Shown here: one piece after another, positions 9,965 through 20,187 of the stretch | Layout of the letters: each line of letters begins with the position of its first letter | Position numbering within the stretch: the first letter of the stretch is position 1 | Source of the DNA: Planobispora longispora | GTDB taxonomy: Bacteria > Actinomycetota > Actinomycetes > Streptosporangiales > Streptosporangiaceae | Reading direction: 5' to 3' | Length of the DNA stretch: 43,140 nt | Assembly (NCBI RefSeq): GCF_016863135.1 | Contig: NZ_BOOH01000011.1 | Span: 1-43,140, forward strand | Notes under the pieces: model-generated | Told to the model about the DNA's origin: nothing | Seen by the model: the letters and a program-made list of their open reading frames with translations, nothing else | The model's database searches: none | Translations under genes and position numbers: made by a program

Positions 9965-10276
9965 GTGGAATCCGCCCTCAAGCCCTTCCGAGTCCTGGCC
10001 TACATCGTCGGCGTGATGCTGCTGGTCCTGGTCACGTGCATGATCCTCAGGTACGGCTTCGACATCGAGGGCCCGTCGAAGATCGTGTCCCCGATCCACG
10101 GGTTCCTCTACATGCTCTATCTCGTGGCCACCATGAACCTGGGCATGAAGGCCCGCTGGTCGTGGCAGTACATCCTCGGCGTGATGCTCGCGGGCACCGT
10201 GCCGCTGCTCTCGTTCGTGTTCGAGCGCAAGGTCACCCAGCGCGTGGAGAACGAGGTCGCCGCCGCGGCGGCCTGA
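9965..10276 (+). CDS. DUF3817 domain membrane protein
   Basis: A 103-residue integral membrane protein starting at GTG 9965. It has three hydrophobic helices (about 10-29, 42-58, 64-82) and the family landmarks P-I-H-G-F-L-Y-M-L-Y and W-S-W-Q-Y. DUF3817 proteins are widespread in actinobacteria and often lie near SURF1 or respiratory genes, as here (47 nt after SURF1), which suggests co-transcription. The molecular role is unknown. Confidence 0.85.
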   Translation: MESALKPFRVLAYIVGVMLLVLVTCMILRYGFDIEGPSKIVSPIHGFLYMLYLVATMNLGMKARWSWQYILGVMLAGTVPLLSFVFERKVTQRVENEVAAAAA

Positions 10277-10315: not shown

Positions 10316-10507
10316 TCAGCGGCCGAGACCGCGCCTGCGTGCGCGCTTGAGCCGCTCGCGCTGGGACGGGTCGAGCATCAGGTAGCCGACGACCGGGGCG
10401 GCGACGACGCCCAGGACGACCAGCAGGGTGATCAGGCCGGGCAGGAAGATCCACGAGAGCAGGACGACGGCTCCGGCACCGATGGCGTACTTCTGGACGG
10501 GTGACAT
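10316..10507 (-). CDS. Small membrane protein, hypothetical
   Basis: A protein of about 63 residues: short polar start (S-P-V-Q-K-Y-A-I-G-A-G), two closely spaced hydrophobic segments (A-V-V-L-L-S-W-I-F-L and L-I-T-L-L-V-V-L-G-V-V-A-A-P) and a basic tail (R-E-R-L-K-R-A-R-R-R). Two in-frame ATGs exist. GGAGG abuts the one at 10516 and sits 9 nt before the one at 10507, so 10507 is preferred. It converges with the DUF3817 gene. No function can be assigned. Confidence 0.6.
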   Translation of the reverse strand: MSPVQKYAIGAGAVVLLSWIFLPGLITLLVVLGVVAAPVVGYLMLDPSQRERLKRARRRGLGR

Positions 10508-10582
10508 TCTCGACATCCTCCGAACGCGGAGCGCGCGCCCCGCCTGGTGTCATTCTGCGTCGCCCGTCCAACGCACGGGCCC

Positions 10583-10678: not shown

Positions 10679-12004
10679 TCACTTCGTGCGGCTGAGGGTT
10701 CCGAGGATCCAGCGGGTGGTTGTGAGCGCGCCCTCACGCGTGGCGCCGCCGGAGTCCTCCGGGCTCTTGCGTGAGTACTGGACGGTGACCACCAGGTTGC
10801 GGGCGCGGAAGATCATTGTGGTGGTGTAGGTGAGGCCGTTGGTGACCTCCTTGGTGAAGGCCTCGTCGGCGATTCCGGGGACGGCCTCCAGCTCTCTGCC
10901 GACGGTCAGGGGAAGACCGACACCGGTCGTGGTCCGCCCGGCGGTCTCCTTCCGGAACCGGGTGTAGTTCTCCTGCGCCACCTTCACCGACGAGAGACGG
11001 AAGGCTTCGATCTGGAGGGTGAACGCGAAGCTGCCGGGCTCGCCGTCGATCGCCTTCCAGTTACAGCGTTTCGAGCCACCCCGGGACGGGGTCGTGTCCA
11101 GCCGCAGATCGGACGCCTGCCGCTCCGAGATGAGCGTGCAGGGGTCGATCTCCCCGGTGAAGAACGTGGGGAGCGGGACCGGGGCGGCCGCCGGGGACGG
11201 GGCCGGGTCCGGAGTCCCGGAGCCGGCCCACAGCACCCCGCCGGTGACCAGGACCGCGGCGGCGACGGCGAGCGCGACGGCGAGGAGCGGCCCGCGGCGT
11301 GAGGGGGCGGGGCGGGGGGCGAGGCTCTCCAGGGTCAGGCGGACGGAGGCGGCGTCGGGCCGGCGTGCCGGGTCGTCCGAGAGCAGGCCGTCCAGGAGCG
11401 GGGCGAGAGGACCGGAACCGGTGGCGCCGGTCTCCGGACCGGCCAACGCGGTGCCGTCGGCCAGGCGGGGGGCGGTGTGGGCTCCGGGAAGGCGCCCCTC
11501 CACGGCGGTGTAGAGGGCGGCGCCCAGGGCGCGCAGACCGTCGGCGGGGGCCGGGACGGCGATGCCGGTGAGGACGACCCGGCCGTCGGGGGCGAGCAGG
11601 ATGGTGTCCGGGGTGGCGGCGAGGTGGACGCCGTGCCGCTGGGCGGCGGTCAGGGCGTCCAGCACGGCCAGGCCCACCTCGGCGGCGCGCTCCGCGGGCA
11701 GCGGCCCCTCGGCCCGGACGGTCTGGGCCAGCGAGCGTCCGGCGGCCGACTCCAGGACCAGCCACATCCCGTCGGGGGCCGGGATCACGTCGTGCAGCGT
11801 GATCACCGAGGGGTGCCGGAGCTCGGCCGCCGCGCGGACCTGGCCGATCAGCCAGTCGTGGTGCGGGCCGGGGGGCGGGAGCCGTACTCCGGAGAGGATC
11901 ACATCCCGGTGGAGCAGTTCGTCGCGGGCCCGCCGGCTCGCGCCGGCGGGGTCACGGCGCTCCAGCAGGCGGTAGCGGCCGGCGAGCAGGTTCGGGTCCG
12001 TCAT
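10679..12004 (-). CDS. Membrane pseudokinase with paired-cysteine ectodomain (array gene 4)
   Basis: A 441-residue protein. Residues 1-230 align with the receptor kinases upstream (L-A-G-R-Y-R-L-L-E, L-R-H-P-S-V-I-T-L-H-D-V) but every catalytic element is changed. The glycine loop is missing, the V-A-V-K lysine is replaced (V-I-L-S), the HRD-VKPxN segment reads H-L-A-A-T-P-D-T, and DFG is absent (L-T-G-I-A). It should not phosphorylate. A Pro-rich linker, a membrane helix (about 239-260) and an outer domain with C289 and C314 (C-N-W), A-D-E-A-F and F-R-A-R-N-L-V-V follow. ATG 12004 has GGAG 5 nt upstream. It lies 96 nt after the preceding kinase, so co-transcription is likely. Confidence 0.85.
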   Translation of the reverse strand: MTDPNLLAGRYRLLERRDPAGASRRARDELLHRDVILSGVRLPPPGPHHDWLIGQVRAAAELRHPSVITLHDVIPAPDGMWLVLESAAGRSLAQTVRAEGPLPAERAAEVGLAVLDALTAAQRHGVHLAATPDTILLAPDGRVVLTGIAVPAPADGLRALGAALYTAVEGRLPGAHTAPRLADGTALAGPETGATGSGPLAPLLDGLLSDDPARRPDAASVRLTLESLAPRPAPSRRGPLLAVALAVAAAVLVTGGVLWAGSGTPDPAPSPAAAPVPLPTFFTGEIDPCTLISERQASDLRLDTTPSRGGSKRCNWKAIDGEPGSFAFTLQIEAFRLSSVKVAQENYTRFRKETAGRTTTGVGLPLTVGRELEAVPGIADEAFTKEVTNGLTYTTTMIFRARNLVVTVQYSRKSPEDSGGATREGALTTTRWILGTLSRTK

Positions 12005-12100
12005 CACCGCTCCAGTCGTCGTTCTCCGGAGGGAACCGCCTCACGGGCAGGAGCCTCACGGGCGAGCGTCCCATGGGAAAGCGCCTTGCGGGGAAGCGCC

Positions 12101-13648
12101 TCACCCACGGCCGTCCAGCCCCCTCGCGACGACCTGCGCGGTGCGGAGGGCACGCCGGCGCAGGTCGGCGGTGGCGCGCTTGCCCGTCATCGACAGGTTC
12201 ACCTCGACCAGCAGGTTGCTGGAGCGGAACCGGATGACGCTGTGCGCGCGGTCGAGGGCGGTCAGCTCGTAGCCGAAGGCCTCCTCGCCGACCCCGTCCA
12301 CGTCCCTGAGGGGCCCGGCCGAGCCCAGGAGCCCGTCTCCCTCGTCGGCCCGGGTCGCGGTCCGCTCGGCGGCGAAGAAGGCGTGCGCGGTCTCGGGGCC
12401 GGTCTTGCCCGGGGCGGGCTCGTGCAGGGACAGCGAGACGGTGATCCGGGAGCCGCCGGTCGCGGGCCCCTCCCATGTGCAGGACGCCTCCCGGTCCCCC
12501 TTCACCTCGACGCCGAGCGGTGAGGAACCGGGGACCACGGCTCCGGCCTGCGCGTCGGTCAGCAGGGAGCAGGGGGCCGGGGCGGTGGTGAAGCGCCCGG
12601 CCCGGGGGTCCGGGCCGGTGGGGGAGGGGGCGGGCGTCGTCGAGCCGCCCGAGGTCAGGAGCACCGTGGCGGCCGCCCCGGCCGCCACGACGGCCAGCCC
12701 CGCCCCGGCGATCAGTCCGGTGCGGCCCCGCGCGGTGCGGCGGCCGGACGGGGACCGTGTCCCCGTGGCCGGAACCGCCGGGAACGCCGGCGACGTCGAG
12801 GACGCCGGGGAGAGGGGCCCGGCGGGCCTGCCGTGGGAGACCTCGCGCAGGGCGGCGCGGAGCGCCCTCTCCCCGGGCCGCTCACGCGGATCCTTGGCGA
12901 GTACGGCCAGCAGCACCGGAGCGAGCCCTCCGGCCCGGGACGGGTACGGGGTCTGCTGGGTGAGCACCGCGCCCAGGGTGGCGACCGGGGTGCCGCGCTG
13001 GAACGGCCCCGCGCCCTCGACGGCGGCGTAGAGCGCCGCGCCCAGCGACCACAGGTCGGCGGCCGGGCCGTCGCCGGTGCCGCGCAGCCGCTCCGGGGCG
13101 ATGTAGCCGGGGGAGCCGACCAGCGCGTCCGGCGAGGTGAGCTGGACGTCCCCTTCGAGGGTGGCGATGCCGAAGTCGGTCAGCAGCACGCCGCCGCCCC
13201 GGTCGATCATGATGTTGGCCGGTTTCACGTCCCGGTGCAGGATGCCCCGGCTGTGGGCGAGGACCAGCGCGTCGAGGACGGCCAGGCCGATCGCGGCCAC
13301 CCGCTCCGGCGGCAGCGGGCCGCGGGCGCGGATCACCTGCTCCAGGGAGTGTCCCCGGACCAGGTCCATCACGATCCACGGGCGGCCGTCCTGGGCGATG
13401 ACGTCGTGCACGGCCACGATGGACGGGTGGCTCAGCCGGGCCGCGGCCCTGGCCTCACGGAGCGTCCGCTCCCGCATCTCGGCCCGCTGCGCCTCGGGGA
13501 GGTGCGGGCCGAGATTGACCTCCTTGACGGCCACCTCACGATGGAGCAGCTCGTCGCGGGCCCGCCAGACCACGCCCATCCCGCCCGCGCCGAGCCGCTC
13601 GACCGCCCGGTAGCGGCCCGCCAGCACGGGGAGCGCCTCGCCCGTCAC
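12101..13648 (-). CDS. Receptor Ser/Thr protein kinase (array gene 3)
   Basis: A 515-residue PknB-type kinase with all catalytic residues: glycine loop G-A-G-G-M-G-V-V (20-27), K42 (V-A-V-K), H-R-D-V-K-P-A-N (catalytic D140), D-F-G (D158) and I-A-P-E. A Pro/Ser-rich juxtamembrane stretch (about 275-310) and a membrane helix (311-332) follow. The extracytoplasmic domain carries C360 (A-P-C-S-L-L-T-D-A-Q-A) and C390 (C-T-W), G-V-G-E-E-A-F, and F-R-S-S-N-L-L-V-E-V. It resembles DUF3558-type domains only loosely. GTG start at 13648 with GAGGGG upstream. It follows array gene 2 by 75 nt. Confidence 0.95.
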   Translation of the reverse strand: MTGEALPVLAGRYRAVERLGAGGMGVVWRARDELLHREVAVKEVNLGPHLPEAQRAEMRERTLREARAAARLSHPSIVAVHDVIAQDGRPWIVMDLVRGHSLEQVIRARGPLPPERVAAIGLAVLDALVLAHSRGILHRDVKPANIMIDRGGGVLLTDFGIATLEGDVQLTSPDALVGSPGYIAPERLRGTGDGPAADLWSLGAALYAAVEGAGPFQRGTPVATLGAVLTQQTPYPSRAGGLAPVLLAVLAKDPRERPGERALRAALREVSHGRPAGPLSPASSTSPAFPAVPATGTRSPSGRRTARGRTGLIAGAGLAVVAAGAAATVLLTSGGSTTPAPSPTGPDPRAGRFTTAPAPCSLLTDAQAGAVVPGSSPLGVEVKGDREASCTWEGPATGGSRITVSLSLHEPAPGKTGPETAHAFFAAERTATRADEGDGLLGSAGPLRDVDGVGEEAFGYELTALDRAHSVIRFRSSNLLVEVNLSMTGKRATADLRRRALRTAQVVARGLDGRG

Positions 13649-13723
13649 CGGCTCACCCCTCGATCTGCCGGGCCGGGGCGCCGGACCGGGGCGGTGTCCT
13701 CCCGGGGAACGCTCACGAACGCG

Positions 13724-15613
13724 TCAGCCATGGACCTGCTGCCGCAGGGCCTCGGCGAGCCAGCGGGCGGTCTTGCCGGCGTTCTCCGCGATCTTTCCGT
13801 CCGGGTCGCCCTTGACGCCGCCCCGCTCGTATTCGACCTCGGCGACCAGGTTGCTGACCCGGAAGACCACGGTCACCTTGTAGGACCCGCCGTAGAGGTT
13901 GATCGTGTTGTGCGCCGCCGCGATGAACGCCTCCTCGCCGACGCCGCTCATGTCCTGGGGCGGCAGGGCCTTGGGAGTGGCGAGCCGGCCCTTGCCGAGG
14001 ATGTCCTGCTTCTTGCTCGCCAGGTACTCCCTGGCCCGTGCGATCTCCGAGCCGTCCTGCTTCTGGGCGACGAGCCGTACGCGCAGGTCGTATTTCTCCG
14101 CGCTGGGCTTGCGCCAGTCCCGGTTGAGCCAGTTGCACTCGGCGGCCTCGACCTCGGAGCTCTGGAAGCCGGGGACCACCTCGGCGGCCTGCTCGTCGGT
14201 GAGCAGGCTGCACGCCCGGGGGGCGGCGGGGAACAGGCCCTGGGTCCCCGTGGTGGAGGGCTCGGGCGCGGCCTCCTCCGGGGCGCCGCTCAGCGTGGGA
14301 CCGAGCAGGAGGCCGATGGTGACCGCCATGCCGGCCAGCAGCACGCCCGTCAGGGCCACGATCGAGCGGGGCACCAGGACGCCCTGCGGGCCGGACGACC
14401 GCTGGGTCGGAGCGGTGGAACCCTCGGGCGTCCACGACGGGGAGGCGGAGGGGACGGGGACGAGTTCCCGGGAGGCGGGCACGTCCCCGTCCGGGCGCGT
14501 GCGCGCGGGCGTGGTGACGTCGTCCTTCGCGGCGGGTACGGCGGCCTCCCGCCCGGGGGCGCCCTGGGCGGCGAGGTCGCGCGGGACGGCGCCCTGCGCG
14601 GGACCGCTCACGGCCTGGCCGGGACCGCTCTGCGCGGGACCGCTCACGGCTTGGGCGGGACCGCTCATGCCCTGCGCGAGACCGTTCCGCGGGGCCAGGT
14701 CCTGCGAGGTGAGACTCCGCAGGGGGACGCTCTGCGAGGTGAGGCCCTGCACGGTGGTGTCCTGCGCGGCGTCCCGTGTCGCGGCGCCCCGTGTCGCGGC
14801 GCCCCGCGTGACGGGCACGGCGGGTGCGGCGAGGACGTCCGGCGCGGCGAGGACGTCCGGCACGGAGGCGAAGGGCTCCGGCACCGGCAGGGCCGCCTGC
14901 GGCATGGGGAGCACGGGCGCGATGGCGGCCACCTCGGGCACGAAGGGGCGGGGCCCGACGCGGGGCGTCTCCGGCTCGGTCTCCGGCGGCTTGGGGAAGG
15001 TGAGTGTGGCGTTCGGCCGGCGGGCGGCGGGCGCCGGGGCGCCGGGGAGGCCGGGGCGGTCCCGGGAGACCTCCAGCAGGGCCGTGCGCACGGTGTCCGC
15101 GCCGGGGCGGAGCGCGGGGTCCCCGGACAGCAGCTTGACCAGGATCGGGGCGATCGGGCCCGCGTTCCGCATCGGGGCGCCGGGGGTGGGGGTGTAGCCC
15201 TCGACGGCGGCGTACAGGGTCGCGCCGAGCGACCACAGGTCCGAGGCCGGTCCGGTCGCGCCCTCGGGAGCCGTGTAGGAGGGGGACCTGACCGCGGGGG
15301 CGGCCAGCACCGCCCGGTCGCCCGGGCCGATCAGCACCGAGGCGGGCCGTACGTCGCCGTGGACCGTCCCGTTCCGGTGCGCGGTCATGATCTGGTCCAG
15401 CAGGCTCAGGCCGATCGCGGCGGTCCGCGCCGGGGACATGGGGCCGTTCTGCCCGATGAGGAACTCCAGCGACGTCCCCCCCGGCTCCGTGGCTCCGCCG
15501 GCGCCGGGGGCGAGGATGTCGGGGCCGCGACCCCCGTGGTCCCCGTAGCCCCCGTGACCGGGTGCGGAACCGGCGTGCCTGCCCTGCCGCCCCGGAGTGT
15601 CTGCCTGGTTCAT
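13724..15613 (-). CDS. N-lobe-less membrane pseudokinase with paired-cysteine ectodomain (array gene 2)
   Basis: A 629-residue protein. After a Gly/His/Asp-rich start (1-47) it enters the kinase fold only at the alpha-D/alpha-E level. There is no glycine loop and no ATP-binding lysine. The catalytic-loop remnant is H-G-D-V-R-P-A-S (Asp kept, Arg for Lys), DFG is missing (L-A-A-P-A-V), but S-D-L-W-S-L-G-A-T-L-Y is well kept. A linker of over 200 residues rich in Pro/Ala/Gln with short internal repeats (G-P-A-Q, T-S-Q) leads to a membrane helix (417-437). The ectodomain has C468, C493, V-G-E-E-A-F and F-R-V-S-N-L-V-A-E-V. Its ATG overlaps the upstream kinase stop (ATGA), indicating translational coupling. 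Confidence 0.88.
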   Translation of the reverse strand: MNQADTPGRQGRHAGSAPGHGGYGDHGGRGPDILAPGAGGATEPGGTSLEFLIGQNGPMSPARTAAIGLSLLDQIMTAHRNGTVHGDVRPASVLIGPGDRAVLAAPAVRSPSYTAPEGATGPASDLWSLGATLYAAVEGYTPTPGAPMRNAGPIAPILVKLLSGDPALRPGADTVRTALLEVSRDRPGLPGAPAPAARRPNATLTFPKPPETEPETPRVGPRPFVPEVAAIAPVLPMPQAALPVPEPFASVPDVLAAPDVLAAPAVPVTRGAATRGAATRDAAQDTTVQGLTSQSVPLRSLTSQDLAPRNGLAQGMSGPAQAVSGPAQSGPGQAVSGPAQGAVPRDLAAQGAPGREAAVPAAKDDVTTPARTRPDGDVPASRELVPVPSASPSWTPEGSTAPTQRSSGPQGVLVPRSIVALTGVLLAGMAVTIGLLLGPTLSGAPEEAAPEPSTTGTQGLFPAAPRACSLLTDEQAAEVVPGFQSSEVEAAECNWLNRDWRKPSAEKYDLRVRLVAQKQDGSEIARAREYLASKKQDILGKGRLATPKALPPQDMSGVGEEAFIAAAHNTINLYGGSYKVTVVFRVSNLVAEVEYERGGVKGDPDGKIAENAGKTARWLAEALRQQVHG

Positions 15614-17241
15614 CCCGCCGCCTTCTGCTTGTTCAACGCCTCCGCGACCCAGACCGCGGCGGTGTGGACGCCGCTTCGGATCGCCGGGCCGTCCTTGGTC
15701 CCGTCCACCACGGTGTAGGCCACCTCCACGACCAGGTTGTCGACGCGGAACGTCACGTAACTCTGTTCGAGCCTGCCGGTCTTGCGGTTCTCGTAGACGT
15801 CGTAGCCGAACGCCTCGTCTCCGACGGGCCGCACCGGCAGCGGGCCGGTGTTCCTGGCCGAACGCGACCCGGCCGAGATGCTCGCCCAGTTCCAGGCGAG
15901 CCGGCCGTTGGGGAGGGTGGCGTTGCGCTGGTTGACGAAGAGCTCGTGGGCCTGGCGCGGGCTCTTGCCCCACTGCTTGTCCTGGCCGCCGGCGGGCTCG
16001 ACCACCAGCCCCTTGCCGGAGGTCGTCCACTCGCAGCCGCCCCTGTTGGTCGGCTTCCCCGCGCCGGTCAGGGCGGGCAGGAGCTGCCCGGCCCGTTCCG
16101 GGGAGATGAGCCCGCACAGGTCCACCGGGGTGGCGAAGGCGCCGGGCCGCTCGCTGAGCCGCACCGGCGCGGCGGGCGCCGTACGGTCCTCGGTGAGATG
16201 GACCACGCCCGCGGTGGCGCCGATGATCATCGCGACCGCGGCCACCTCGGCGACGGCCCACACCAGCGCTCCCCGCCCGCGCGGGGGGCGGACGAGGGAC
16301 GACACCAGCCGGGTGAGGGTCGATCCGGTGGATCCCGGCCCCGCGAGCCTCGGCCCGGAGCGGCTCCCCGGATACCCGGAGAGGTCGACGTCGTCGGAGG
16401 ACGGGGAGCCGGTGGCCGGACGGCCGGAGGCGATCTCCTGGAGTTCCCGGGAGACGTCGTCGAAGGACGGCCGGGCCACGGGGAGAGGGTGCAGCATGCG
16501 CATCAGCAGCGGGCCCAGCTCGCCCGCGCGCTCGGGCGGCCGGGGCGGCTCGGTGAGCACCTTGCTGATCGCCGAGACGGGCGTGTCGGCGGGGTGCGGG
16601 GGCACGCCCTCGACGGCGAAGTAGAGCGTCGCGCCCAGCGACCACAGGTCGGAGTAGGGGCCGCCGCGCTCGCCGCGCAGCCGTTCCGGGGCGATGTAGT
16701 GGGGAGAGCCGACCAGGCGGCTGGTCTGCCCGGCGAGGGTGTCGCCCTCGGCGACGGCGATGCCGAAGTCGGTGAGGACGGCCTTGCCGGTCCTGGAGAG
16801 GAAGATGTTGCCCGGCTTGACGTCCCGGTGCAGCACCCCGACGGCGTGCGCGGCGGCCAGCGCGCTGAGGATGCCCACACCCGCCCGGGCCGCCTGGTGC
16901 GGCGGGAGCGGCCGGCGGTCCCGGACGATCTTCTCCAGCGATTCCCCGGTGAGCAGCTCCATGATGATCCACGGGCGGTCGTTCTCGACGACCACGTCGT
17001 GGATCGTGACGATGGACGGGTGTTTGAGCCGGGCGGCCAGGTTGGCCTCGCGGAGCGCGGCGGCGCAGACGTCCTGCCGCTGGAGGGGGGACAGTTCCTG
17101 CGGGAGCCGTATCTCCTTGACCGCCACGTCGCGGCGGAGCGTCTCGTCGGAGGCGAGCCACACCGTGCCCATGCCGCCCTCGGCGAGAGGGTTGAGCAGG
17201 CGGTAACGGCCCGCCAGCACTCGCGCGTCGATCCTGCTCAC
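15610..17241 (-). CDS. Receptor Ser/Thr protein kinase (array gene 1)
   Basis: A 543-residue active-type kinase: G-G-M-G-T-V-W, K42 (V-A-V-K-E-I), H-R-D-V-K-P-G-N (D140), D-F-G (D158) and Y-I-A-P-E. One membrane helix (about 325-348) and an outer domain follow, with C376 (D-L-C-G-L-I-S-P-E-R-A), C403 (C-E-W), V-G-D-E-A-F and F-R-V-D-N-L-V-V-E-V. The frame is open to an ATG at 17295. The GTG at 17241 is preferred because it puts K42, D140 and D158 at exactly the same numbers as in array gene 3 and gives the same short lead to L-A-G-R-Y-R. The ligand is unknown. First gene of the four-gene array. Confidence 0.95.
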   Translation of the reverse strand: MSRIDARVLAGRYRLLNPLAEGGMGTVWLASDETLRRDVAVKEIRLPQELSPLQRQDVCAAALREANLAARLKHPSIVTIHDVVVENDRPWIIMELLTGESLEKIVRDRRPLPPHQAARAGVGILSALAAAHAVGVLHRDVKPGNIFLSRTGKAVLTDFGIAVAEGDTLAGQTSRLVGSPHYIAPERLRGERGGPYSDLWSLGATLYFAVEGVPPHPADTPVSAISKVLTEPPRPPERAGELGPLLMRMLHPLPVARPSFDDVSRELQEIASGRPATGSPSSDDVDLSGYPGSRSGPRLAGPGSTGSTLTRLVSSLVRPPRGRGALVWAVAEVAAVAMIIGATAGVVHLTEDRTAPAAPVRLSERPGAFATPVDLCGLISPERAGQLLPALTGAGKPTNRGGCEWTTSGKGLVVEPAGGQDKQWGKSPRQAHELFVNQRNATLPNGRLAWNWASISAGSRSARNTGPLPVRPVGDEAFGYDVYENRKTGRLEQSYVTFRVDNLVVEVAYTVVDGTKDGPAIRSGVHTAAVWVAEALNKQKAAG

Positions 17242-19497: not shown

Positions 19498-20187
19498 ATG
19501 GCTACTCCGCAACAACGACGGATCCTCGTGGTCGAGGACGACGCGACGATCGCGCGGGCCGTACGGCACCGGCTCGTCGCGGAGGGCTTCGACGTGCGGA
19601 TCGCCGGGGACGGCGAGGAGGCGCTCGCGGCGTACGCGAAGGCGGAGCCCGATGTGGTGGTCCTCGACCGGCTGCTCCCCGGCCTCGACGGGCTGGAGGT
19701 CTGCCGGCGCATGCAGGCGGCCCGGCCGGTGCCGGTGCTCATGCTCACCGCGCTGGGCGAGGAGACCGACCTCCTCGTCGGGCTCGGGGTCGGCGCCGAC
19801 GACTACATGACCAAGCCGTTCAGCATGCGCGAGCTGGTCGCGCGGGTGCACGCGCTGCTGCGGCGGGTGGAGCGCGCCTCCCAGCTGGCCGCGGACGACA
19901 TGGTCGTCCGGGTGGGCGACATCGAGGTCGACACCGCCGAGCGGCGGGTCTACGTCCGGGGCGAGGAGGTCCAGCTCACCCGGACCGAGTTCGACCTCCT
20001 GCGCCGGCTGGCGGAACGGCCGGGGCAGGTGTTCGAGCGGGAACGCCTCCTGGCCGACGTGTGGGGCTTCTCCGAGGCCGCGGCCACCCGGACCGTCGAC
20101 AGCCACGTGCGGGCCTTGCGCCGCAAGCTCGGCTCCGGCGTCGTCCGCACCGTCCACGGGGTCGGCTACGCCCTCGTGAGGTCCTGA
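19498..20187 (+). CDS. OmpR/PhoB-type response regulator
   Basis: A 229-residue regulator. The receiver domain has E13-D14-D15, phospho-site D57 (V-V-V-L-D-R-L-L-P-G) and Lys near 106 (M-T-K-P-F). The C-terminal winged helix (about 135-228) has L-T-R-T-E-F-D-L-L, F-E-R-E-R-L-L-A-D-V-W and R-T-V-D-S-H-V-R-A-L-R-R-K-L. It is transcribed with the downstream histidine kinase (68-nt gap) and is its likely partner. Confidence 0.95.
   Translation: MATPQQRRILVVEDDATIARAVRHRLVAEGFDVRIAGDGEEALAAYAKAEPDVVVLDRLLPGLDGLEVCRRMQAARPVPVLMLTALGEETDLLVGLGVGADDYMTKPFSMRELVARVHALLRRVERASQLAADDMVVRVGDIEVDTAERRVYVRGEEVQLTRTEFDLLRRLAERPGQVFERERLLADVWGFSEAAATRTVDSHVRALRRKLGSGVVRTVHGVGYALVRS

What the first reader, a model, noticed from the sequence alone, without database searches (positions are those of the whole stretch)
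10679..17241. Alternating array of two receptor kinases and two pseudokinases with a common ectodomain
Seen: four minus-strand genes in the order kinase, pseudokinase, kinase, pseudokinase, all with cytoplasmic kinase-fold, Pro-rich linker, one membrane helix and one extracellular domain. The two kinases have K42, D140 and D158 at identical positions. The two others lack most or all of these. Known: PknB-type receptor kinases and some bacterial pseudokinases exist. Inference: tandem duplication followed by loss of catalysis has given dedicated partner receptors, so the unit may sense through hetero-oligomers.
Basis: partly seen in the sequence, partly recalled or inferred. Interest (0 to 1): 0.85.

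Follow-up and report, generated by a model that had tools for sequence, protein, structure and literature searches.

The report
Paired live and dead receptor kinases
A soil bacterium and its relatives keep a fixed row of four surface receptors, two working kinases each followed by a broken one, and one of the broken ones has repeatedly had its outer sensing half exchanged for a different type, as a recognition receptor might.

Summary
Four minus-strand genes (K1, PK1, K2, PK2) encode receptors with DUF3558-like ectodomains. K1 and K2 carry K42/D140/D158; PK2 is a full-length pseudokinase; PK1 has only a kinase C-lobe, and in four loci not even that. The array was found only in one family (named copies: Streptosporangiaceae): 27 complete copies including the window, plus one with a shrunken PK2, same order, open frames. 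dN/dS of the kinase-derived parts of the dead genes is 0-0.53. Three relatives have lost PK2 or K2+PK2, and three K1 have lost a catalytic residue; K2 is intact in 30 of 30. PK2 keeps the PknB back-to-back dimer residues in 27 of 28. K1-PK1 and K2-PK2 domains co-diverge beyond background, not exclusively. The ectodomain tree rejects K1-to-PK1 duplication; K1 and K2 resemble the members of a live tandem pair found in seven genera. Unforeseen: the PK2 ectodomain is exchanged as a cassette between species (5 of 10 close pairs differ in type; delta lnL 741 against 14-82 for other parts). Most likely: two kinase-pseudokinase receptor pairs, PK2 being a swappable specificity subunit. Interaction itself is inferred, not shown.

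The parts
15610..17241 (-). K1: receptor Ser/Thr kinase (GTG start), catalytic motifs intact here; ectodomain about 15613-16137
   Evidence: ORF and motifs; Pkinase E 1.8e-43; groups with pair-A kinases
13724..15613 (-). PK1: receptor with an isolated kinase C-lobe (about 15059-15481), long Pro-rich linker, TM (about 14291-14383) and ectodomain (about 13727-14221); ATGA overlap with K1
   Evidence: sequence, Pfam 82-199 of 263, alignment A2, AlphaFold2 model, Foldseek match to about 165 of 270 residues of PknB
12101..13648 (-). K2: receptor Ser/Thr kinase, the only member with Lys, HRD Asp and DFG Asp in every complete copy seen; ectodomain about 12104-12601
10679..12007 (-). PK2: full-length receptor pseudokinase with shortened activation segment; pseudokinase domain about 11318-12007
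10682..11179 (-). PK2 ectodomain: the cassette that is exchanged between species (type e2 here)

Best explanation
The four genes encode two kinase-pseudokinase receptor pairs at the cell surface. K1 works with PK1, mainly through their ectodomains and membrane regions. K2 works with PK2, through the N-lobes: the dead PK2 keeps the PknB-type back-to-back dimer face and so could allosterically switch K2 without catalysing anything. K2 is the output enzyme. PK2 supplies the changeable sensor: its ectodomain is exchanged as a cassette while its pseudokinase half is held constant. Shown here: anatomy, conserved order, purifying selection on the kinase-derived parts, retention of the dimer residues, co-divergence, cassette exchange. 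Inferred: physical heterodimers, the direction of allostery, the ligand, and what is phosphorylated.
For: Order kept and frames open in 27 of 27 loci not cut by a contig end (26 fetched plus window) and in a 28th with a shrunken PK2. dN/dS in ten chosen close pairs: PK2 pseudokinase 0.12-0.50; PK1 C-lobe 0-0.53 in the nine pairs that have it. The PknB R10/L33/D76 equivalents are R/L/D in 27 of 27 PK2, K1 and K2, whereas PK2 has the beta3 Lys in 1 of 27, the HRD Asp in 0 of 27 and the DFG Asp in 1 of 27. Partial correlations of divergence over 19 of the 27 arrays: K1ecto-PK1ecto 0.66, K2kin-PK2kin 0.56 and K1kin-PK1kin 0.53 are three of the four highest of 28 pairs; controls adjacent in the DNA: K1ecto-PK1kin -0.03, K2ecto-PK2kin 0.05, PK1ecto-K2kin 0.29. 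PK2 ectodomain: 5 of the 10 close pairs have pseudokinase domains 82-94% identical but ectodomains 27-32%; two show identity recovering downstream; forced onto the array backbone it loses 740.6 log-likelihood units, K2 ecto 81.8, the five other parts 14.5-45.0. K1+PK1 are present without K2+PK2 in one locus.
Against: No complex was predicted or measured. The shrunken PK2 of L166 reads R-A-D, so the L33 equivalent is kept in 27 of 28. All 18 kinases of nine pair loci also have R/L/D, so these residues may be kept for folding; the chance that all three fall among the 11 of 89 N-lobe positions that are invariant and PknB-like in 26 PK2 is about 0.0015 (computed from the counts). K1kin also co-diverges with PK1ecto (0.58), PK2kin (0.49) and K2ecto (0.41), and the adjacent control PK1ecto-K2kin has p=0.002, so the pairing is not exclusive; the test was chosen after seeing data, and partial Mantel tests are liberal (recalled). 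Two Streptosporangium loci keep K1, PK1 and K2 without a working PK2. K2 ecto and PK2 ecto do not co-diverge (0.01). The K1kin, K1ecto, PK1ecto and PK2kin parts also conflict with the backbone at p-AU under 0.05, so some conflict is general.
Confidence: 0.5

Rival explanations
1. PK1 and PK2 are phospho-scaffolds, not kinase activators: K1 and K2 phosphorylate their Thr/Pro-rich cytoplasmic stretches, which then recruit FHA-type proteins, as described for the MviN pseudokinase.
For: MviN precedent read in the review PMC12599244. PK1 has a linker of about 240 residues here, and a T-x-P/T-T/A stretch before the membrane in 21 of 27 copies, a pattern I wrote after seeing the alignment. In 3 of 27 copies, and in L166, PK1 has lost its kinase remnant while TM and ectodomain stay.
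Against: The PK1 linker is poorly conserved; no FHA gene was looked for; it does not explain the kept dimer residues of PK2 or the ectodomain exchange.
Confidence: 0.25
2. The dead genes are slowly decaying tandem duplicates with no function.
For: PK2 is debris in L164 and absent from the locus in L165; K2 and PK2 are absent in L167; K1 has lost a catalytic residue in L065, L166 and L167; PK1 lacks its C-lobe in L076, L077, L078 and L166; dN/dS nears or exceeds 1 in linkers and in some ectodomain comparisons.
Against: 28 arrays keep both dead genes open and in order; dN/dS of the kinase-derived parts is at most 0.53 in ten chosen pairs; the PK2 replacements for VAIKE, HRDVKPAN and DFG are themselves fairly uniform.
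Confidence: 0.08
3. The ectodomains are the point: a cell-surface recognition or adhesion complex whose signalling half is secondary, with PK2 as the variable partner.
For: The two large PK2 ecto types do not cluster on the array tree (e2: 8 changes, shuffled mean 9.2, 135 of 500 shuffles as low; e4: 5 changes, 232 of 500 as low). L167 keeps K1+PK1 although K1 has lost Lys and HRD Asp and no K2 is present.
Against: K2 keeps its catalytic residues in 30 of 30 copies; the PK2 pseudokinase domain is more conserved than its ectodomain (65% against 37% mean identity over 26 arrays).
Confidence: 0.15

Closest known systems
PknB-type (Hanks) receptor Ser/Thr kinases
   Same: K1 and K2: cytoplasmic kinase, one TM, one ectodomain; PknB is the best match of K2 among solved structures (E 2.1e-42)
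   Different: DUF3558-like ectodomain instead of PASTA repeats; arranged in tandem with catalytically dead copies
ActPs3 pseudokinases (MviN pseudokinase domain)
   Same: PK2: all catalytic motifs lost, large activation-segment deletion, TM after the domain, dimer-face residues kept (family features read in PMC12599244)
   Different: PK2 is a receptor with an ectodomain in an array with live kinases; its placement with an MviN-like protein is not resolved
Tandem pairs of DUF3558-like receptor kinases in Streptosporangiales (no published name known to me)
   Same: K1 groups with pair member A, K2 ectodomain with member B
   Different: in the nine pair loci examined all 18 kinases have Lys, HRD Asp, Asn and DFG Asp; no dead member there
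ChrS pseudokinase / HrrS histidine kinases of Corynebacterium glutamicum
   Same: a dead kinase version raising output through a live paralogue; heterodimers of the native proteins (passages of PMC9491836)
   Different: histidine kinases; the dead form arose in laboratory evolution, and heterodimers of the truncated form were not detected
TraA of myxobacteria
   Same: a polymorphic surface receptor (abstract of PMC6372800)
   Different: not a kinase (recalled); self-recognition has been tested there, not here

Membership tests
PknB-type receptor Ser/Thr kinase (K1, K2) | full kinase domain with beta3 Lys, HRD Asp, DFG Asp | tested here: met
   window K1 and K2; K2 in 30 of 30 complete copies (27; L164-L166); K1 in 28 of 31 (exceptions L065, L166, L167)
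PASTA kinase (PknB_PASTA_kin) | PASTA ectodomain / NCBIfam cut-off 450 bits | tested here: not met
   225.3 and 227.3 bits, kinase part only; no PASTA family among the Pfam matches
DUF3558 (PF12079) | score over the gathering cut-off 34.1 | tested here: not met
   27.7, 25.9 and 16.0 bits for PK2, K2 and PK1, none for K1 at E<=1; E<=0.1 in 12 of 18 ectodomains, E<=0.01 in 21 of 25 PK2 and 1 of 27 PK1: a distant relative only
ActPs3 pseudokinases (PK2) | all three catalytic motifs degraded | tested here: met
   26 of 27; L082 keeps Lys and DFG but not the HRD Asp
ActPs3 pseudokinases (PK2) | deletion in the activation loop | tested here: met
   DFG-to-aF distance 42-44 in K1/K2, 12-26 in 22 of the 23 PK2 measured; one was 75 and four of 27 gave no value
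ActPs3 pseudokinases (PK2) | dimer-interface residues conserved | tested here: met
   R/L/D in 27 of 27; R/A/D in the shrunken L166 copy
ActPs3 pseudokinases (PK2) | phylogenetic grouping with MviN pseudokinases | tested here: inconclusive
   groups with one MviN-like protein at support 86, but on a 3.19-long branch; PK2+K2+pairB is equally likely (p-AU 0.538)
ActPs3 pseudokinases (PK2) | aromatic residues filling the ATP site | not tested
   no alignment to the MviN structure was made
ActPs2 pseudokinases (PK2) | beta3 Lys to Arg and HRD Asp to Asn | tested here: not met
   PK2 has S/T/A (K in one) and A/T/G/S/L
TraA-like polymorphic self-recognition receptor (PK2 ecto) | alleles differ between strains and set recognition | not testable with these tools
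   one genome per species held; recognition needs an experiment

The most novel reading that the evidence does not exclude
PK2 is the specificity subunit of a bacterial allorecognition-like receptor: a dead kinase whose ectodomain exists as several old types kept across species and moved as a cassette by recombination, reading out through the live partner K2, while the K1-PK1 half stays constant.
Probability: 0.3. Interest if true: 0.9.

Novelty: new variant of a known kind. Interest (0 to 1): 0.75.

Why it matters
Bacterial pseudokinases remain largely unexplored by experiment (abstract of PMC12599244). Here nature offers 28 matched copies of a live-dead receptor array with an intermediate, partial losses and swapped sensors, which makes 'what is a dead receptor kinase for' directly testable in soil actinomycetes. 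A receptor with only a kinase C-lobe, and a dead receptor whose sensor is exchanged while its dimer face is frozen, would be bacterial parallels to receptor-pseudoreceptor pairs in animals and plants.

Tried and rejected
Simple K-to-PK duplication twice over: rejected for K1-PK1 by the ectodomain tree (p-AU 0.0088); not rejected for K2-PK2 (p-AU 0.133).

Hidden paralogy instead of cassette exchange (two PK2 genes, differential loss): none of the array loci searched carries a second PK2 or a spare ectodomain in the fetched stretch, and the pseudokinase halves follow the array backbone closely (r 0.98, with a backbone that includes them). Not strictly excluded.

Donor of the exchanged ectodomains: none found within the fetched stretches; whole genomes were not searched for one.

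Ectodomain fold by comparison: no PDB sequence match (profile A4, E up to 10). The 50 Foldseek rows shown for each full model were kinases; the ectodomain was not searched alone, so its fold has no named relative here.

Promoters and terminators: none found by consensus scan, which says little in this GC-rich genome. Within-species polymorphism could not be tested: one genome per species.

Literature: full-text searches listed no paper that, by title and abstract start, treats such an array; most subscription-journal papers are not held. Seen: PMC12599244, abstract and sections 6, 7, 8 and 14; passages of PMC9491836 and PMC6333020; abstract and outline of PMC6372800. Other papers: search listings only. 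That R10, L33 and D76 are PknB's back-to-back dimer residues is recalled; consistent with it are PDB titles of L33D and D76A mutants, the allosteric back-to-back dimer cited in PMC6333020 and the review's remark on analogous MviN residues.
Full report
What is there. The window holds four minus-strand genes, in order of transcription K1 (15610-17241), PK1 (13724-15613), K2 (12101-13648) and PK2 (10679-12007). PK2 is a full-length kinase-like domain without the catalytic motifs. AlphaFold2 models that stretch as C-lobe helices at high confidence, although the whole model has mean pLDDT 68; Foldseek matches it to about 165 of 270 residues of PknB. All four carry one ectodomain distantly related to DUF3558, below its curated cut-off, with two cysteines present in 26 of 26 K1, PK1 and K2 ectodomains and 24 of 26 PK2; the two PK2 exceptions have lost both together.

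How widespread. A PK2 query found 4 of 4 genus genomes and 28 of 297 family genomes (9 of 68 genera) at E<=1e-32. At E<=1e-35 it found 26 of 297 genomes drawn from the order and 6 of 394 drawn from the class, with 137 genera in that sample; every match lay in the window's own family. The listings do not show how many of those genomes lie outside it. Named copies come from Planobispora, Planomonospora, Streptosporangium, Spongiactinospora, Thermocatellispora and Microtetraspora. Contig lengths equal to those of two genus genomes (142760 and 222067 bases) place the window in Planobispora, family Streptosporangiaceae. I fetched the neighbourhoods of all 27 other genomes with a match. In 26, and in the window, all four genes stand in the same order with open frames; the remaining one (L071) is cut by a contig end. 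Five further stretches were fetched because K1 matched and PK2 did not: L166 has all four, with a shrunken PK2 and a PK1 without C-lobe; L164 has PK2 as debris; L165 lacks PK2; L167 lacks K2 and PK2; L168 is cut by a contig end.

Selection and decay. In ten chosen close pairs, dN/dS (Nei-Gojobori) is 0.12-0.50 for the PK2 pseudokinase, 0-0.53 for the PK1 C-lobe (nine pairs), 0.11-0.52 for the K1 and 0.05-0.45 for the K2 kinase domain. So the kinase-derived parts of the dead genes are constrained like the live ones. Other parts are looser: linkers reach 1.6, ectodomain values reach 1.37 (K1, L064/L068, dS 0.02) and 1.17 (PK2, a swapped pair), and the short TM stretch of PK1 gives erratic values. 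K2 keeps Lys, HRD Asp and DFG Asp in 30 of 30 complete copies. K1 has lost a key residue in 3 of 31: DFG Asp in L065, Lys to Arg in L166, Lys to Arg and HRD Asp to Gly in L167; several further K1 have lost part of the glycine loop or other HRD-motif letters. L082 shows an intermediate PK2, with Lys and DFG kept and the HRD Asp gone.

Origin. A second locus in the same genome (L034), and loci like it in Planobispora takensis, Nonomuraea (two), Acrocarpospora, Microtetraspora, Microbispora, Planotetraspora and Actinomadura, is a tandem pair of receptor kinases with the same kind of ectodomain (nine loci examined). All 18 of these kinases have Lys, HRD Asp, Asn and DFG Asp. In trees of 16 of the 27 arrays and these nine pairs, K1 groups with pair member A (kinase 99, with one pair outside; ectodomain 98) and the K2 ectodomain with member B (93); PK1 and PK2 ectodomains group together (86). 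PK1 as sister of its neighbour K1 is rejected (p-AU 0.0088), PK2 with K2 is not (0.133), and PK1 with K2 and pair B is as likely as the free tree (0.506). The likely history is an A-B pair that gained two extra members which then died, not two K-PK duplications. The kinase tree does not place PK2 firmly.

Mechanistic clues. First, the three residues known (recalled) from PknB's back-to-back dimer are R, L and D in 27 of 27 PK2, although Lys, HRD Asp and DFG Asp are gone in 26, 27 and 26 of 27; the shrunken L166 copy reads R-A-D. Eleven of 89 N-lobe positions are both invariant and PknB-like in 26 PK2, so all three falling among them by chance is about 0.0015; but the same residues are also kept in the live kinases examined, so a folding role is possible. 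The activation segment is cut from about 43 to 12-26 residues in 22 of the 23 PK2 that the script could measure (one was 75; four gave no value). Second, over 19 arrays, conditioned on the kinase-type domains, the strongest co-divergences are K1ecto-PK1ecto 0.66, K1kin-PK1ecto 0.58, K2kin-PK2kin 0.56 and K1kin-PK1kin 0.53, followed by K1kin-PK2kin 0.49; parts adjacent in the DNA but not cognate give -0.03, 0.05 and 0.29. A first version over 26 and 19 arrays agrees for K1ecto-PK1ecto (0.57 and 0.69). The test was chosen after seeing data. Third, the losses: K1+PK1 remain without K2+PK2 in L167, but K2 remains without a working PK2 in L164 and L165.

The exchanged sensor. In 5 of the 10 close pairs the PK2 pseudokinase domains are 82-94% identical and the ectodomains 27-32%; a sixth, more distant pair (L067/L074) has 65 and 35%. 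In two of the five (L060/L066 and L063/L073) DNA identity falls from above 90% to 36-56% in the ectodomain and recovers to 71-98% downstream; in the other three the downstream DNA is unrelated. I sorted PK2 ectodomains into five types by clustering (six or two with other thresholds). In 18 core arrays identity is 42-92% within and 22-39% between types (61 and 92 pairs), a separation partly made by the clustering; mean K1, PK1 and K2 ectodomain identities differ by under 1 point between the two classes of pair. On a tree of other parts of the array the types need 9 changes; the two large types are no more clustered than shuffled labels (135 and 232 of 500 shuffles as low), while all five labels together are slightly clustered (4 of 200 shuffles as low), the three-member type e1 being one clade. 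Forced onto the backbone tree (26 arrays), the PK2 ectodomain loses 740.6 log-likelihood units, the K2 ectodomain 81.8, the other five parts 14.5-45.0; four of these five are also under p-AU 0.05. Hence the K1-PK1 half has rather constant sensors and the K2-PK2 half variable ones, PK2 extremely so.

Reading. I think the array is two receptor pairs, each with a dead partner: PK1 an ectodomain co-receptor of K1, PK2 an N-lobe partner of K2 with an interchangeable sensor. That the proteins bind, that PK2 activates rather than inhibits, and what is sensed, are inference. The rival that the dead members are phospho-scaffolds is live; mere decay is disfavoured. The resemblance to polymorphic recognition receptors such as TraA is a lead only; strain-level data are needed.

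Limits. Genomes are one per species and mostly unnamed. Starts were chosen by rule. dN/dS values rest on small dS. Tree support is SH-aLRT from quick searches. The PK2 ectodomain donor was not sought genome-wide.

Noticed in passing
L034 5333-8721 (own genome C40): A second locus with a tandem pair of receptor kinases of the same ectodomain kind, catalytic residues present in both; eight similar pair loci examined in related genera.
   Followed up: partly
window about 10316-10516, minus strand: A small membrane-protein-like ORF (about 66 aa, MSPVQKYAIGAGAVVLLSWIF...) between PK2 and the plus-strand small gene at 9965; a like protein reads in L165 and L167, where PK2 is gone.
   Followed up: no
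L169 (own genome C16): An MviN-like pseudokinase (PVAVHTF, HLCLTPDH, LLGLG) in an open frame of its own in the locus fetched around a MurJ match.
   Followed up: partly
L062 12431-14458 and L070 11864-13876, plus strand: An additional, more distant kinase gene lies between the array and the GNAT gene in these two Streptosporangium loci.
   Followed up: no
L164 8148-8608, minus strand: PK2 remnant: the start of the N-lobe stands next to part of the ectodomain in another frame, which looks like a recent loss.
   Followed up: yes
window 19498-20187, plus strand: By reading of the translations only, a response regulator, followed by a long open frame that includes a histidine kinase and a multi-helix membrane part, lies beyond the array.
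   Followed up: no
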